Shown: positions 7,324-64,000 of the stretch, in pieces
Layout of the letters: each line of letters opens with the position of its first letter
How positions within the stretch are numbered: the stretch's first letter is position 1
Source: Salsipaludibacter albus
GTDB lineage: Bacteria; Actinomycetota; Nitriliruptoria; Nitriliruptorales; Nitriliruptoraceae
Direction: 5' to 3'
DNA: 64,000 nucleotides
Assembly: GCF_019798055.1 (NCBI RefSeq)
Contig: NZ_JAHOPH010000007.1
Coordinates: 1 to 64,000, forward strand
The notes under the pieces: generated by a model
The model's input: the letters and a program-made list of their open reading frames with translations, nothing else
What the model was told of the DNA's origin: nothing
The model's database searches: none
Translations under genes and position numbers: made by a program

Positions 7324-9543
7324 TCAGGCCGCCGTGACGGACACGGGCACGGCGGTCAGCGCGGCCGTGCCCGACAACGGGTCCAGGGTCGTCGACGACA
7401 TCAGCAGGTTGACGTTGGCGCCGGGGCGGTCGCCGGCGACGTCCAGCTCGATCCCGTCCAGGTCGTGGCCGAACCCGTGTGGCAGCGAGACCACGCCGGG
7501 GCGGATGTCGTCGGTCACCTCGACCGGCACGGTCACGGCACCGTCGTCGGTCGACACGAGCGCGTGCCCGCCGTCCGACAACCCCCAGGCGATCGCGTCG
7601 TCGGGGTGGACCTGCAGCGTGCAGAGGTCCCTGGTCCCACGCAGGTGGGGCAGGTTGTGCATCCACGAGTTGTTCGTGCGGAGGTGGCGGCGCCCGACGA
7701 GCAGCGGACCATCGGACTGGGCGTCGCGCAGGGCCACCAGCCGCGCGACGTCCGCCATGATGGCGGCCGGTGCGAGCTCCACCCGCCCCGACGCCGTGGT
7801 CAGGACGTCGGGGATCCGAGGCTCGAGCGCGCCGAGGTCGATCCCGGACGGAGCCGCCTCCACCGCGGCCATGCTCAACCCGTCCGGCGCGTCGCCGAAC
7901 CCGTCGCCGTACGGACCCGAGCGGAGCATCAGGTCGAGCAGACGCTCGGGACCTCGGCGTGGGGCGACTGCCGCCAGCAGGTCCTCGGCGGTCCGCTCGC
8001 CGGTGCGTGCGGCCGGCCGCGACGCCAACTGGCTCGCCAGCCGGTGGGCGACCAGGTCGTCGGCATCGGCCGCGGGGACGTCGGGGCCGGCGCCCTGCGC
8101 GATCGCGGCCAGCCGCAGCAGGATGTCCTCCTCGGCCATCGCGTCGTCCGGCAACGGCAGCGGCGCCCGCGTGTAGACCGCGGCGTCCCGGATCGCCAGC
8201 GCGGCGAAGGCGAGGTCGTAGTGGGCCCGGTACCGGCTGGCCGGTGGTGGCAGGATCACGTCGGCACGCCGCGAGGTCGCGGTGACGTACGGGTCGACCG
8301 CGACCATGAAGTCCAGCTCGGCCAGGGCAGCGTCCAGGGCGCCGCCGTCGGGCGTCGACAGCACCGGATTGCCGGCCACGCACACGAAGGCCCGGACCTG
8401 GCCTTCCCCCGGCGTGGTCATCTCCTCGGCCAGCGCGGCGGCGGGAAGCTCACCCAGAACCTCGGGATGGCCGGACACCCGTGACCTCCACCGTCCGAAC
8501 CTCGTCGGCGGACGCCCGGTGCGGTCCTCGTGGGCCGGGTTGGGGAACATCGCGCCACCCGCCCGGTCGAGGTTGCCGGTCAGGACGTTGCAGACGTCGA
8601 CCAGCCACGACGCCAGCGTGCCGACGGTGGTCGTGGTCGTGCCGATGCGTCCGTACACCACGGCCCGGTCCGCCTTCGCCACCGCCCGGGCGAGGTCGCG
8701 GACCACGTCGGCGTCGACCCCGCAGGCCGGCGCGACGACGTCGGCGTCGAACCCGGCCAGCGCGTGGTCCACCTCCTCGACCCCGTCGACGTGGTCGGCC
8801 AGGTCACCCAGGTCGACCAGGCCCTCGTCGAACAGCGTGCGCACCATCCCGGCCAGCAGCAGGGCATCGGTGCCGGGGCGGATCGCGACGTGCTGGTCGG
8901 CCTTGGCGGCCGTGCGCGACCGCCGGGGGTCGATCACCATCAGCTGCCCGCCGCGGGCCTGCAGGTCGCGGATGCGACGGCCGACGTCCGGGACGGTCCA
9001 CAGGCTCCCGTTGGACATCAGCGGGTTCGCACCGAACGCGACCAGCAGGTCGGTCCGGTCGATGTCGGGCACCGGGATCGCGAGCGGATCGCCGAACAGC
9101 TCGGCGCAGGACCGGTGCTTGGGCATCTGGTCGACGGTGCTGGCGGTCGCGACGTTGCGCGTGCCGAGGGCCTGGCGCAGGACCCGTCCGTAGAGCTGTC
9201 CGGCCAGCGTGTGCACGTTCGGGTTGCCCTGGTAGAGCGCGACGGCATCGCGGCCGTGGGTGTCGAGGATCGGGCGGAGGTGTGCGTCGACGTGGGCGAA
9301 CGCCTCGTCCCAGGTCACGTCGCGCCAGGTGTCGCCGTCGCGGATCCGTGGCGTGGTGAGCCGGTCGGGGTCGTGGTCGAGCTCGCGCAGTGCCGCACCC
9401 TTCGGGCAGACGTAGCCGCGCGACAGGACGTGGTCGTCGTCCCCGCGGACCCCGACGATCGTGTCGCCGTCGAGCTCGAGCACCAGCCCGCAGGTGGCCT
9501 CGCACAGTGGACAGATCCGTCGCGCCGTCGTCGTCACGTCCAC
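7324..9543 (-). CDS. Molybdopterin-dependent oxidoreductase with N-terminal 4Fe-4S site
   Basis: A 739-aa member of the DMSO-reductase (MopB) superfamily, similar in plan to M. tuberculosis Rv0197. The N-terminal 4Fe-4S motif is C11-x2-C14-x3-C18-x28-C47. The Mo-bis-MGD domains follow: GNPNVH, the STVDQMPKH segment with Cys147 close to the expected molybdenum-ligand position, FGANPLMSNGSL, and the C-terminal MopB domain with LRTNNSWMHNLP and DDIRPGVVSLPHG. There is no Tat signal, so it is cytoplasmic. No electron-transfer subunit, FdhD sulfurtransferase or cofactor-biosynthesis gene lies nearby, so both substrate and redox partner are unknown. GTG or ATG choice at the 5' end does not affect the cluster motif. 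Confidence 0.88.
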   Translation of the reverse strand: MDVTTTARRICPLCEATCGLVLELDGDTIVGVRGDDDHVLSRGYVCPKGAALRELDHDPDRLTTPRIRDGDTWRDVTWDEAFAHVDAHLRPILDTHGRDAVALYQGNPNVHTLAGQLYGRVLRQALGTRNVATASTVDQMPKHRSCAELFGDPLAIPVPDIDRTDLLVAFGANPLMSNGSLWTVPDVGRRIRDLQARGGQLMVIDPRRSRTAAKADQHVAIRPGTDALLLAGMVRTLFDEGLVDLGDLADHVDGVEEVDHALAGFDADVVAPACGVDADVVRDLARAVAKADRAVVYGRIGTTTTTVGTLASWLVDVCNVLTGNLDRAGGAMFPNPAHEDRTGRPPTRFGRWRSRVSGHPEVLGELPAAALAEEMTTPGEGQVRAFVCVAGNPVLSTPDGGALDAALAELDFMVAVDPYVTATSRRADVILPPPASRYRAHYDLAFAALAIRDAAVYTRAPLPLPDDAMAEEDILLRLAAIAQGAGPDVPAADADDLVAHRLASQLASRPAARTGERTAEDLLAAVAPRRGPERLLDLMLRSGPYGDGFGDAPDGLSMAAVEAAPSGIDLGALEPRIPDVLTTASGRVELAPAAIMADVARLVALRDAQSDGPLLVGRRHLRTNNSWMHNLPHLRGTRDLCTLQVHPDDAIAWGLSDGGHALVSTDDGAVTVPVEVTDDIRPGVVSLPHGFGHDLDGIELDVAGDRPGANVNLLMSSTTLDPLSGTAALTAVPVSVTAA

Positions 9544-60676: not shown

Positions 60677-60946
60677 TCAGGGCGCACCAGGGTCGAAGAC
60701 GTCCCACAGGGTGCGATCACAAACGGCGCACTCCATCGCCAGCGCACGCCGCGGCATCGGCTTCATCGGGCCCTGCCGAATCCTGTCCTCCGCTGCCTGC
60801 GCCGAATCCACACACTGGGCGCACACCACGTAGCTGCCCAATGCCGTGATCCACCCCATCGGCCGTTCAGGGCGGCCTGGTCGCGGACGGCCTCTTCCTG
60901 CCTGCGCCCGTTGACGACCCACTTCCTTGTAGCTCTCATCCACCAT
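60677..60946 (-). CDS. Small zinc-ribbon-like protein
   Basis: An 89-aa basic protein with two Cys pairs, YVVCAQCVDS and AMECAVCDRT, spaced to form a four-Cys zinc ribbon. Its basic N-terminal half (GRQRAQAGRGRPRPGRPERP) suggests nucleic-acid contact. ATG 60946 lies inside the end of the MazG-RusA gene (11-nt overlap) and GCGGAG precedes it. It is the last gene of the McrC operon. Confidence 0.6.
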   Translation of the reverse strand: MVDESYKEVGRQRAQAGRGRPRPGRPERPMGWITALGSYVVCAQCVDSAQAAEDRIRQGPMKPMPRRALAMECAVCDRTLWDVFDPGAP

Positions 60947-61946
60947 CGGCAGCTCCGCGCTTCGGAGTTGATCGTGGGTCAGCACCCGGGAACCGGATCG
61001 GGCCTGCACGCACGGTGAGGACCGAACCCGACTGCACACGGCGGACGGTCAGGCGTTCGACGAGGTGGTCGTTGGGGGTGAACGGCAGGTGTGCCTTCGG
61101 GTCCCGGCCGAGCAGCGGTGACAGGCCGTCGATGGTCGGCTTCATGATTCTTTCGAGCGATCGCTCCGTCCGGACGGCGATGTCGACCCAGGCCGGGCCA
61201 GTCACCTGGTCGGTGACCGCCTCGTCGACCGCAGCCTCCCAGGCCCCCATGTCGAACCCGCGACTTCCCGGAAGGGCGTTGAAGGCCACGATGAGAGCCG
61301 GGGCCTCGGCTGGTGGCAGGACGTCCGGATCGAGCGCCACGGTGACGCCGGGGATGTCGACCTCCTTCGTGACCACCAGGGCATCCAGGCCGCGATACCC
61401 CCACGAGCAGACACCGGCGTCACGGAGGCCGGCAAGCACGGGGCGTGCGAGGTTGTCGATGTCCACGTGGCGACGTGTCGAGGACAGGGCCAGTGCGATG
61501 CCCAGCCGAGAGCACGGGCTGCGTCCCGCGGCCGCCGTGGCGACGGCTCGGCGCCATTCCTTCTCGCGAGGATCCTCACCGGCGATGGGGGTACCTCGCA
61601 CGACGATCGGGGAGGTCGGATCGACGTCGGGGGCGGGGAACCGTTCGTCGTTGCGGTCGATCTTGGCATGGGCGGCGGCCGCCAGGTCCACGCCGAGGAT
61701 GTCGGCGAGTCGGACGAGGTAGATCGCGACGTCAGCCAGTTCGTCCCGGACGGCGTCAGCCTTGGCCGGGTCGTCCATGACAGCACTGGCCTCGTCCGGC
61801 GTGAGCCACTGGAATTCGGCGAGCAACTCGCCCGCCTCCCCCGCCAGCGCCATCGCGAGGTTGTCGGGCGTGTGGTACTGCCCCCAGTCACGGACGTCGG
61901 CGAAGCGTCGGAGCCGCGTCTGCAGGTCCTCGAACTCGGACGTCAC
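60936..61946 (-). CDS. MazG-like pyrophosphohydrolase fused to RusA-like domain
   Basis: A 336-aa fusion. Residues 1-105 match the MazG/RS21-C6 all-alpha NTP pyrophosphatase: GEAGELLAEFQWL (E37, E40), DELADVAIYLVRLADILGVDL (E69, D72) and KIDRNDERFP, with E-x-x-E and E-x-x-D metal sites. Residues ~110-336 contain SSTRRHVDIDNLARPVLAGL, whose D162-x-D164-N-L resembles the active-site motif of RusA Holliday-junction resolvases. The last ~100 residues have no recognised family. Coupled to the PLD gene by a 4-nt overlap. One part would cleave (d)NTPs and the other branched DNA; a MazG-only reading is the conservative one. Confidence 0.7.
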   Translation of the reverse strand: MTSEFEDLQTRLRRFADVRDWGQYHTPDNLAMALAGEAGELLAEFQWLTPDEASAVMDDPAKADAVRDELADVAIYLVRLADILGVDLAAAAHAKIDRNDERFPAPDVDPTSPIVVRGTPIAGEDPREKEWRRAVATAAAGRSPCSRLGIALALSSTRRHVDIDNLARPVLAGLRDAGVCSWGYRGLDALVVTKEVDIPGVTVALDPDVLPPAEAPALIVAFNALPGSRGFDMGAWEAAVDEAVTDQVTGPAWVDIAVRTERSLERIMKPTIDGLSPLLGRDPKAHLPFTPNDHLVERLTVRRVQSGSVLTVRAGPIRFPGADPRSTPKRGAADGG

Positions 61947-63085
61947 TCGTATCCCTCCCGCGGCTGAGCGGCCAAGGCCACCGAATCCGGAACCCCCAAT
62001 CCTCCGAGCTCGAACACCGTCGCCACTCCACCGAGATCGATGGTCTTGCCGGCGACGATGTTCGGCGCGAACGACACGCCGTTGGCACGGAGCTCGGCAA
62101 GGGTGACCGGCCGCTCGAGTTCGGTCATTGCCTCCAGGTGAATGATGCCGATGGCCGCCCCCGGTTCGATGTTGAGGCGGTCGTGCAGTTGCGGCAGTGT
62201 TGACACGCCCAGCAGGTGCCCGTAACGCCGATACGCCTCGCGAGCGTCGGCCACCTCGTAGTCGCCGGGATAGGTGGAGTAGCCCCGGATGGCGCGTTGT
62301 TCCTCGGGCACGGTCGCGTCCTTGACGAGGTGGAACAGGACCCCGCCCTCCGCGAGCGCGCGAAACTGGTTGGTGTTGCGTCGCCAGAACAACGCCCGGT
62401 CGGCTCCATCACGCTGCCGAAGCTGGAAGTCCCACCACTCGTCGTTCGTGATGGCGATGTAGCCGGGTGCACCGCGGGTCGAGCTGGCGGCGAGTCGTCC
62501 GACCAGTTGGCCAGTGCGTGCCTGCAGGCGCACGAGTCGACGCCGGTCCTCCCGTTCGAGCATGCGACGGTCACGGGCGCGCTGGCGATAGTGGTCCCAA
62601 TCGTGACTGCGACGCAGGTCTCGCAACGGCAAGCCGTGGTCCCAGACCTGCTCGAACCTGGCGCGCTGAGCATCGGCCCCTGGGGATGGATCACGCTCGA
62701 CCAATTCCTCGTACTGCTCGACGTTGGACGTCCAGCCCGCGCCGGTGAGGTTGGCCGATCCGCTGAGCGTGACGAGTTCGCCTGGTCGCTCGACGAGGTA
62801 GAGCTTCGGATGGAACTGGGACGCCGACAGTGCACTGCCGTCGGGCACGACACGGACGTCGAACCCGGCGTGCTCGAGCTGTTCGACCGCCTGAGGGTCG
62901 GTCACCCCGAACCCCAGTCCGACGACCGCACGGCTCCCGGAAGGGGGGCCGAGGCGCAACAGCCGCGAGACGCCCGAGGTCTTCGCGTAGGCAACGCCGA
63001 GGTGAGCGCGCGTCGACCCGTCGAACGCCACCCGCATGCGTTCCTCGAACGCCGTGACCTGGTTCAGGCCTGGCCGATACTCCAC
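61943..63085 (-). CDS. PLD-like nuclease with EVE/PUA-like C-terminal domain
   Basis: A 380-aa protein. Residues 1-150 contain FHPKLYLVERPGELVTLSGSANLTG, a single PLD active-site half (H92, K94, S110, N112). From about residue 205 the pattern GYIAITNDEWWDF, ADRALFWRRNTNQFRALAEGGVLFHLVKDA and IRGYSTYPG resembles EVE/PUA-type folds, which read modified bases in restriction systems. GTG 63085 is behind GGAGGAGG. It starts 24 bp after McrC, on the same strand. Confidence 0.75.
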   Translation of the reverse strand: MEYRPGLNQVTAFEERMRVAFDGSTRAHLGVAYAKTSGVSRLLRLGPPSGSRAVVGLGFGVTDPQAVEQLEHAGFDVRVVPDGSALSASQFHPKLYLVERPGELVTLSGSANLTGAGWTSNVEQYEELVERDPSPGADAQRARFEQVWDHGLPLRDLRRSHDWDHYRQRARDRRMLEREDRRRLVRLQARTGQLVGRLAASSTRGAPGYIAITNDEWWDFQLRQRDGADRALFWRRNTNQFRALAEGGVLFHLVKDATVPEEQRAIRGYSTYPGDYEVADAREAYRRYGHLLGVSTLPQLHDRLNIEPGAAIGIIHLEAMTELERPVTLAELRANGVSFAPNIVAGKTIDLGGVATVFELGGLGVPDSVALAAQPREGYE

Positions 63086-63109
63086 CTGGCACCTCCTCCG
63101 GCCGACACG

Positions 63110-64000
63110 CTAGGCACCGATTGGCACCTGCACACCTCGCGTGGTGCGTGATCGGTCGGCTGGCGACCGGAGGTGAGGTCGCAAAGCCTCGGCGAGTCGG
63201 TCGAGGGCGGCTTCGACGTCCGTGGGGGTGCCCCGAAGGGCCAGCTCATGGGTCTCGATGGCTGTGCCGCTTCCGATGACCTCAACGTGCTTCGGTGGCG
63301 GTCCGCCTTCTCGTTCGGCGTACAGGAGCGAGGACGCTGGGAGGCCCATGACCGTGCTGTAGGCGTGGGCTTGGTAGAGGTCGCCCGACCGCCCGCGGCC
63401 GCCCTCGAGCAGCTTGTACTTGACGTCGGCAACGTGCACCGGACGGCGGTTCCGGAAGAACACGATGTCAGGCTTCATCACCAGGTGCCGGTCGCGGTCG
63501 AACGCCGTCCTGGGCTCGCGTTCAACCGTCACGTCGTCGGGCATCCGACGACGGAGCCCCTCGGCCACGTGGTCCTCGAACACGGTGCTCATGTCGACGA
63601 GGAACGTGTCGCCGTGTGCAACCCCTGCGTGTTCGGCGATGAACCGTCGCGCCAGGATCAACCTGGCGAGGCGGGCCGGCGTCGCGTAGTGGCGATCCAG
63701 CCGCGTGAAGACGTGCCCATCGAGGGATTCCGGACGCGGTGCGCCATCCGACACCTCGTGCATGGCAGCAAGGTGCCCCCGCAGGAGGCGACGGATGCCG
63801 CGAGGCAGGTTGCGGTCCACAGCGGCGTCCACCGCAGCCGCCTTCAGGAACCGGTTCAGGTCGGTGTCGGCGGTGAACTCGTCGAAGTCGCACGGAGCAG
63901 GAACCGGTGGCCGATGCGGCGTGCGCGCCAGCTCGCCGAAGTCGAGCCGGCCCTGCACGCGGGTGACCCGGTCGTGGCGGTGCCGGTAGCTGTGTACGAG
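63110..64000 (-). CDS. mcrC: McrC-like restriction component (5' partial)
   Basis: The frame is open to the window edge, so the N-terminus is missing; 297 codons including the stop are visible. QGRLDFGELART and FDEFTADTDLNRFLKAA are characteristic of McrC, and KPDIVFFRNRRPVHVADVKYKLL supplies the PD-(D/E)XK nuclease core; DLYQAHAYSTVMGLPASSLLYAE is the family end. McrC is the nuclease partner of the McrB GTPase in modification-dependent restriction. McrB should lie just upstream of this gene, beyond 64000; I infer this from family organisation. Confidence 0.85.
   Translation of the reverse strand, partial: LVHSYRHRHDRVTRVQGRLDFGELARTPHRPPVPAPCDFDEFTADTDLNRFLKAAAVDAAVDRNLPRGIRRLLRGHLAAMHEVSDGAPRPESLDGHVFTRLDRHYATPARLARLILARRFIAEHAGVAHGDTFLVDMSTVFEDHVAEGLRRRMPDDVTVEREPRTAFDRDRHLVMKPDIVFFRNRRPVHVADVKYKLLEGGRGRSGDLYQAHAYSTVMGLPASSLLYAEREGGPPPKHVEVIGSGTAIETHELALRGTPTDVEAALDRLAEALRPHLRSPADRSRTTRGVQVPIGA

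What the first reader, a model, noticed from the sequence alone, without database searches (positions are those of the whole stretch)
60677..64000. McrC-led operon with a PLD-EVE-like protein, a MazG-RusA fusion and a zinc ribbon
Four same-strand genes are tightly packed (24-bp gap, then 4-nt and 11-nt overlaps) behind McrC. Classical McrBC is two genes; here the nuclease subunit is followed by another nuclease with a possible modified-base reader, a nucleotide pyrophosphatase fused to a junction-resolvase-like domain, and a small Cys4 protein. This looks like an extended modification-dependent defence system.
Basis: partly seen in the sequence, partly recalled or inferred. Interest (0 to 1): 0.85.

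Follow-up and report, generated by a model that had tools for sequence, protein, structure and literature searches.

The report
McrBC operon carrying extra nuclease and dCTPase
In an actinobacterial defence island, a standard modified-DNA-cutting system (McrBC) has gained three extra genes, including a second DNA-cutting enzyme and a nucleotide-destroying enzyme; this exact set is found nowhere else I searched, but pairs of the same kinds of enzymes recur in other bacteria, which makes their cooperation worth testing.

Summary
Four co-directional minus-strand genes (60677-64000) have the stated spacing, and the contig beyond the window supplies the missing McrB (64362-66830, 16 bp before McrC). 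It is a five-gene run beside a class 1 DISARM locus; McrBC-DISARM association is already published. The domain calls mostly hold. Gene 2 is a SauUSI/BfiI-type PLD nuclease; its C-terminal domain is not a detectable EVE domain but matches the N-terminal domain of HNH_2 endonucleases (hhalign 95%, P 2e-8). Gene 3 is a dCTP-pyrophosphatase (DCTPP1/RS21-C6) domain fused to a tandem RusA-like protein with one intact acid triad. Gene 4 is an orphan CxxC/CxxC ORF. The block is not a conserved system: no other genome searched has it. McrBC relatives in the class are two-gene pairs; the PLD protein occurs in five other Nitriliruptoria genomes beside different partners, mostly restriction genes; the MazG domain otherwise follows an SLFN-g3 helicase (7/7 in the class); the RusA part is a stand-alone chromosomal gene. 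It is best read as a mosaic operon. The surprising remainder: related dCTPase-like MazG genes sit in tight operons with reader-type nucleases in Nocardiopsis, Streptomyces and Priestia. I found no description of that coupling.

The parts
63110..64000 (-). McrC nuclease subunit (whole gene 63110-64345, GTG start, 411 aa; its partner McrB lies just outside the window at contig bases 64362-66830, minus strand, 822 aa)
   Evidence: McrC:: PF10117 4e-30; PDB 6ut5 McrC 2e-13; PD-(D/E)xK-like KPD...ADVKYK. McrB:: AAA_5 6e-23; GPPGTGKT, DEINR, NTADRS
61943..63085 (-). PLD-family restriction-type nuclease with a C-terminal recognition-type domain, 380 aa
   Evidence: invariant H92-P-K94 ... S-G-S-A-N112-L-T ... 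E123; best folds SauUSI, NgoAVII, BfiI
61979..62470 (-). C-terminal domain of the PLD protein, homologous to the N-terminal domain of HNH_2 endonucleases of Mesorhizobium and Deinococcus plasmids
   Evidence: hhalign A4 vs A5 prob 95.3, P 2e-8, 127 columns; controls 0.05-0.15%
61611..61946 (-). MazG-like dCTP-pyrophosphatase domain (residues 1-112 of the fusion)
   Evidence: 44% identity to mouse/human dCTPase structures incl. the 5-Me-dCMP and 5-methyl-dCTP complexes; E37, E40, E69, D72 aligned with E63, E66, E95, D98
61332..61610 (-). first RusA-like domain (residues 113-205), acidic triad D162, D164, D188 retained
   Evidence: the three Asp are invariant in five tandem relatives; fold matches RusA 1q8r/2h8c/2h8e, prob 0.90-0.96
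60987..61322 (-). second RusA-like domain (residues 209-320), degenerate (S263/E265 in place of the DxD pair, D293 kept)
   Evidence: same strand/helix order as the first in the model
60677..60946 (-). small ORF, 89 aa, with CAQC and CAVC pairs (zinc-ribbon-like); orphan, weak coding support
   Evidence: not passed by the codon-position filter

Best explanation
This is a mosaic restriction operon. A canonical two-gene McrBC type IV system in a defence island has had a free-standing PLD restriction-type nuclease inserted 24 bp behind McrC, and behind that a dCTP-pyrophosphatase (MazG) that lost its usual SLFN-g3 helicase partner and fused to a tandem RusA-like protein. Proposed working: the genes are probably expressed together. 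McrB (GTPase motor and reader) and McrC (nuclease) cut DNA carrying a modified, probably cytosine, base. The PLD protein, acting as a BfiI-like dimer, cuts DNA chosen by its C-terminal domain, independently of McrBC. The MazG domain hydrolyses dCTP or 5-substituted dCTP, lowering the supply of modified precursor for a phage and clearing modified nucleotides released by cleavage. The single intact RusA-like site may act on branched DNA. Shown: gene order, spacing, families, active-site residues, lack of conservation of the block. Inferred: co-transcription, substrates and any cooperation.
For: McrB-McrC present with motifs. Relatives of this McrBC in four other Nitriliruptoria genomes and Streptomyces plasmids carry none of the three extra genes. 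The PLD protein is found in five other Nitriliruptoria genomes with changing neighbours: 8 bp after a SauUSI-like type IV enzyme and before an HNH remnant (G050), overlapping an intact phosphorothioate-DNA HNH enzyme (G036; NF045808 333 bits, cut-off 180) or a remnant of it (G051), 185 bp before drmD-drmMI (G011), divergent from MazG (G062). MazG relatives follow SLFN-g3 in 7/7 loci; the window's genome has no SLFN-g3 and one MazG match. The RusA tandem is stand-alone elsewhere. No C5-cytosine methylase in the genome, so the host could tolerate a 5mC cutter. dCTPase identity.
Against: Co-transcription is inferred from spacing only. What base the McrB N-terminal region reads is unknown. The model of the PLD C-terminal half is of low to medium confidence. 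Related MazG genes are recurrently linked to reader-type nucleases, which argues for more cooperation than a chance mosaic.
Confidence: 0.62

Rival explanations
1. Coupled system: the dCTPase (MazG) is a functional partner of the modification-dependent nucleases. It destroys modified dCTP, either to stop a phage building nuclease-attracting or resistant DNA, or to keep modified nucleotides out of host DNA so that McrBC and the PLD enzyme do not attack self.
For: MazG overlaps by 4 nt an HNH enzyme with an EVE-like-looking N-terminus in Nocardiopsis flavescens; a homologous pair (45% identity) lies 8 bp apart in Streptomyces NBC_01724; N. eucommiae has the HNH enzyme, MazG and SLFN-g3 together; Priestia has MrcB_N (1.5e-51)-HNH overlapping MazG, then SLFN-g3. 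MazG is 44% identical to dCTPases crystallised with 5-Me-dCMP and dm5CTP; 5-methyl-dCTP hydrolysis by RS21-C6/DCTPP1 is noted in PMC10742078.
Against: In six of the 11 plasmid MazG neighbourhoods inspected I saw neither such a nuclease nor SLFN-g3 beside it. The Nitriliruptoria partner is a helicase, not a reader nuclease. No substrate was measured; canonical dCTP may be the target.
Confidence: 0.2
2. Pure juxtaposition: unrelated defence and housekeeping genes accumulated in an island and by chance share strand and tight spacing; only McrBC and the PLD enzyme act in defence, each alone, and the MazG-RusA fusion is a decaying by-product.
For: Block unique to one genome; RusA tandem lies in ordinary chromosomal contexts elsewhere, e.g. 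between a cysS-like gene and a CoA-disulfide-reductase-like gene, and is frameshifted or stop-interrupted in two genomes.
Against: MazG and first RusA-like active-site residues are intact; strong Shine-Dalgarno sequences precede PLD (GGAGGAGG) and MazG (GGGAGGG); PLD stays near restriction genes in most loci.
Confidence: 0.15
3. The PLD protein is a DISARM component (a DrmC equivalent) and the cluster is a DISARM extension.
For: Full class 1 DISARM gene set lies at 72044-91087; in G011 the PLD gene sits 185 bp before drmD-drmMI; McrBC-DISARM association is reported (PMC11090510, PMC12458937).
Against: The island already has its own drmC (E 1e-47); the window PLD protein has no DrmC match and carries a recognition-type domain; no DISARM gene was seen next to PLD in G036, G050, G051 or G062 (short contigs).
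Confidence: 0.03

Closest known systems
Canonical McrBC type IV restriction, including the branch associated with DISARM-like genes (Bell et al. 2024, PMC11090510; PMC12458937)
   Same: McrB AAA+ GTPase with NTAD signature, McrC PD-(D/E)xK subunit, neighbouring class 1 DISARM genes
   Different: three further genes directly behind McrC; the McrB N-terminal region has no Pfam match
PLD restriction enzymes: BfiI, NgoAVII/NgoFVII, nuclease domain of SauUSI
   Same: PLD nuclease domain with H-x-K...N...E signature, separate recognition-type domain, similar size to BfiI
   Different: C-terminal domain is not detectably B3 or EVE; it belongs with the N-terminal domain of HNH_2 endonucleases; no helicase
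dCTP pyrophosphatase DCTPP1 / RS21-C6 (all-alpha NTP pyrophosphatase, MazG-like)
   Same: 44% identity over about 100 residues, same fold, E/E/E/D metal site, aromatic residues W21, W47, Y76
   Different: fused to a RusA tandem; L12 where the mouse enzyme has H38; embedded in a restriction operon
RusA Holliday-junction resolvase
   Same: fold (prob 0.90-0.96) and three aspartates in the first domain
   Different: two RusA-like domains in one chain, only one with the intact triad; no Pfam RusA score above cut-off

Membership tests
McrBC type IV restriction system | McrB AAA+ GTPase with NTAD-type signature next to McrC | tested here: met
McrBC type IV restriction system | McrC family match and PD-(D/E)xK residues | tested here: met
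   PF10117 105 bits vs 23.9; KPD...DVKYK
McrBC type IV restriction system | modified-base reader in the McrB N-terminal region | tested here: inconclusive
   no Pfam match in residues 1-500; the region is shared with other McrB relatives
McrBC type IV restriction system | GTP-dependent cleavage of modified DNA | not testable with these tools
   needs enzyme assay
CoCoNuT (McrBC relatives) | variant NxD signature and coiled-coil CnuB/CnuC | tested here: not met
   signature is NTAD; coiled coils not computed
PLD restriction nuclease (BfiI/NgoFVII/SauUSI) | PLD fold with HxK...N...E signature | tested here: met
PLD restriction nuclease (BfiI/NgoFVII/SauUSI) | B3 recognition domain (BfiI, NgoAVII) | tested here: not met
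   C-terminal profile finds no PDB chain up to E 10
EVE domain protein | match to PF01878 or to an EVE domain | tested here: not met
   a PUA-like fold remains possible
DrmC (DISARM) | match to DrmC profiles | tested here: not met
   the real drmC is at 72044-72913
MazG-like dCTP pyrophosphatase | fold and E-x-x-E ... E-x-x-D metal site | tested here: met
MazG-like dCTP pyrophosphatase | dCTP or 5-methyl-dCTP hydrolysis | not testable with these tools
   needs enzyme assay
RusA resolvase | RusA fold and three catalytic Asp | tested here: met
   first domain only; residue correspondence to E. coli RusA is from memory
RusA resolvase | Pfam RusA score above cut-off | tested here: not met
   no match for the fusion; stand-alone relative 14.4 bits vs 22.8

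The most novel reading that the evidence does not exclude
dCTPase-coupled modification-dependent restriction: a recurring but undescribed pairing in which a DCTPP1-like MazG removes modified dCTP while a reader-nuclease (EVE-like-HNH, MrcB_N-HNH, or here McrBC plus a PLD nuclease) destroys DNA that already carries the modification, so that the cell attacks cytosine modification at both the precursor and the polymer level.
Probability: 0.18. Interest if true: 0.72.

Novelty: new variant of a known kind. Interest (0 to 1): 0.45.

Why it matters
The McrBC core and its DISARM neighbour are known. New here are a PLD nuclease family, seen only in Nitriliruptoria, whose recognition-type domain is shared with HNH endonucleases (a domain swap between two unrelated nuclease folds), a tandem RusA-like protein, and a repeated operon link between a dCTP-pyrophosphatase and nucleases that look modification-dependent. 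If that link is functional, it makes a specific idea testable: that some type IV restriction loci also police the nucleotide pool. MazG has been listed as a predicted but unvalidated defence domain (PMC13092281).

Tried and rejected
Conserved four-gene system: rejected, no second copy. DrmC-like role for the PLD protein: rejected by profile. EVE domain in the PLD protein: not found by Pfam, PDB search or hhalign with the EVE domain of a neighbouring gene. Phage origin of the PLD or RusA-like parts: no match in viral contigs for PLD, one weak PLD-domain match in phages, none for RusA. Sequencing-error fusion of MazG to RusA: the frame is continuous with matching codon-position bias, but reads were not available. 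Zinc protein as conserved partner: only chance-level matches. Pattern scan of viral contigs for the HNH-type domain: nothing. Paper searches for MazG with DUF2075 or with McrB/HNH: no description found.
Full report
Observation. The window is bases 1-64000 of contig C67 (145,779 bp) of a 97% complete, 4.25 Mb genome. The genome belongs to the class Nitriliruptoria of the Actinomycetota, inferred because class-mates with the PLD gene are named Nitriliruptoraceae and Egibacteraceae in the public records. Past the edge McrC starts at 64345 (GTG), and 16 bp further lies the stop of McrB (64362-66830). McrB has GPPGTGKT, DEINR and NTADRS; McrC has KPD...DVKYK. Gaps along the run are 16, 24, -4 and -11 nt. 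PLD and MazG-RusA have strong Shine-Dalgarno sequences (GGAGGAGG, GGGAGGG), the small ORF a poor one.

Surroundings. Upstream of McrB and divergent lies an EVE-domain protein of 621 aa (68191-70056, EVE 1e-6), whose C-terminal part looks Mrr-like by eye. Then come drmC (72044-72913), drmB (72808-74781), drmA (74778-78425), a drmMI-like region with an assembly gap (82404-86663; by sequence resemblance, not profiled), another PLD protein (86671-87900) and drmD (87932-91087): a class 1 DISARM gene set. Association of canonical McrBC with a DISARM-like cassette is reported by Bell et al. (PMC11090510) and repeated in PMC12458937, so this part is known. The window's genome has no C5-cytosine methylase (PF00145; the same search rings in 10 of 14 control genomes), which is compatible with a 5mC-cutting McrBC.

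Gene 2. Pfam sees only a sub-threshold PLD domain. An alignment of five full-length members (four relatives at 61-70% identity to the window protein) gives invariant H92-P-K94, N112 and E123. The PDB sequence search finds SauUSI and BfiI, and Foldseek of the model ranks SauUSI (4e-9), NgoAVII (3e-6) and, lower, BfiI (6e-4). So it is a restriction-type PLD nuclease. Its C-terminal 165 residues match nothing in Pfam or the PDB and only the PLD relatives themselves in 397 genomes of the phylum. From memory I recognised the motif 'FW...FxAL..G.LF...NIVxGK' in some HNH endonucleases. I recovered such sequences independently by a DNA pattern and tblastn, and hhalign aligns 127 columns at 95% probability, P 2e-8, against 0.05-0.15% for control comparisons. 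Thus the domain is shared by two unrelated nuclease folds, as expected of a recognition domain. That it reads a modified base is inference; EVE membership was tested and not met.

Neighbours of gene 2 elsewhere. G050: 8 bp after the C-terminal part of a SauUSI-like type IV enzyme (PADLOC mREase_IV 6.5e-70; gap to the longest ORF start) and followed by an HNH remnant. G036: overlaps the start of an intact phosphorothioated-DNA restriction enzyme (NF045808, 333 bits) and diverges from an SLFN-g3 helicase. G051: followed by a remnant of the same HNH gene. G011: 185 bp before drmD-drmMI. G062: divergent from MazG. These contigs are mostly short. Partners change but in four of these five loci are restriction or DISARM genes.

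Gene 3. Residues 1-112 are a MazG-like domain, 44% identical to mouse and human dCTPase, with E37, E40, E69, D72, W21, W47 and Y76 aligned to the enzyme's E63, E66, E95, D98, W47, W73 and Y102. The role of those residues in the mouse enzyme is from memory. Residues 113-320 are two RusA-like domains. The first keeps D162, D164 and D188, invariant in five relatives; the second is degenerate. Outside this genome the two halves are separate genes. The MazG half follows an SLFN-g3 helicase in 7 of 7 class loci inspected; the window genome has none. The RusA tandem stands alone in ordinary chromosomal contexts in another family of the class and was not found in the rest of the phylum sample, plasmids or phages. 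The fusion was seen only here.

McrBC elsewhere. Relatives with the same N-terminal region occur in G036, G040, G043 and G049 (31-41% identity for McrC) and in Streptomyces plasmids. None has the three extra genes nearby; in G043 McrC is followed instead by an HNH gene.

The wider pattern. Among plasmid relatives of the MazG domain I inspected 11 neighbourhoods. In four, MazG is close to an HNH enzyme with a reader-type N-terminus: Nocardiopsis flavescens (4-nt overlap), N. eucommiae (same gene cluster, MazG broken by a frameshift), Streptomyces NBC_01724 (8 bp) and Priestia aryabhattai (MrcB_N 1.5e-51 plus HNH, 4-nt overlap). SLFN-g3 is next to or near MazG in N. eucommiae, Priestia and Halomonas. 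The EVE-like nature of the Nocardiopsis/Streptomyces N-terminus is by eye only. No random-pair control was run, so the enrichment is suggestive. Library searches found no description of it; DefensePredictor lists MazG as a predicted, unvalidated defence domain (PMC13092281).

Interpretation. The five genes are most likely one transcription unit that arose by shuffling of modules in a defence hotspot. McrBC should restrict DNA with modified bases; the PLD enzyme should be an independent restriction nuclease; the MazG domain should trim the (modified) dCTP pool. Everything about substrates and cooperation is inferred.

Noticed in passing
L027, L028, L029, L030, L031, L032, L033 (MazG loci): A two-gene operon, SLFN-g3 (DUF2075) helicase followed by a dCTPase-like MazG, recurs in 7 of 7 inspected Nitriliruptoria loci and partly in Halomonas, Nocardiopsis and Priestia; it looks like a candidate defence pair.
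   Followed up: partly
contig G000:C67 72044-91087 (outside the window): Class 1 DISARM gene set (drmC, drmB, drmA, a drmMI-like region with an N gap, drmD) with an extra PLD protein on the opposite strand between drmMI and drmD.
   Followed up: partly
contig G000:C67 68191-70056 (L002:8192-10054): EVE domain fused to a C-terminal region that looks like an Mrr-type nuclease, divergent from McrBC; probably another modification-dependent enzyme.
   Followed up: no
L101:2428-5743 (Priestia aryabhattai plasmid): MrcB_N-HNH nuclease, MazG and SLFN-g3 helicase in one compact run; a three-gene version of the same theme in Bacillota.
   Followed up: partly
L066:3843-8069: An McrB relative of 1408 aa with an insertion of about 600 residues between its N-terminal region and the AAA+ domain.
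   Followed up: no
L026 about 8193-8665 and G011:C21:989378-990009: Frameshifted or stop-interrupted copies of the tandem RusA-like gene, suggesting it is dispensable in some relatives.
   Followed up: no
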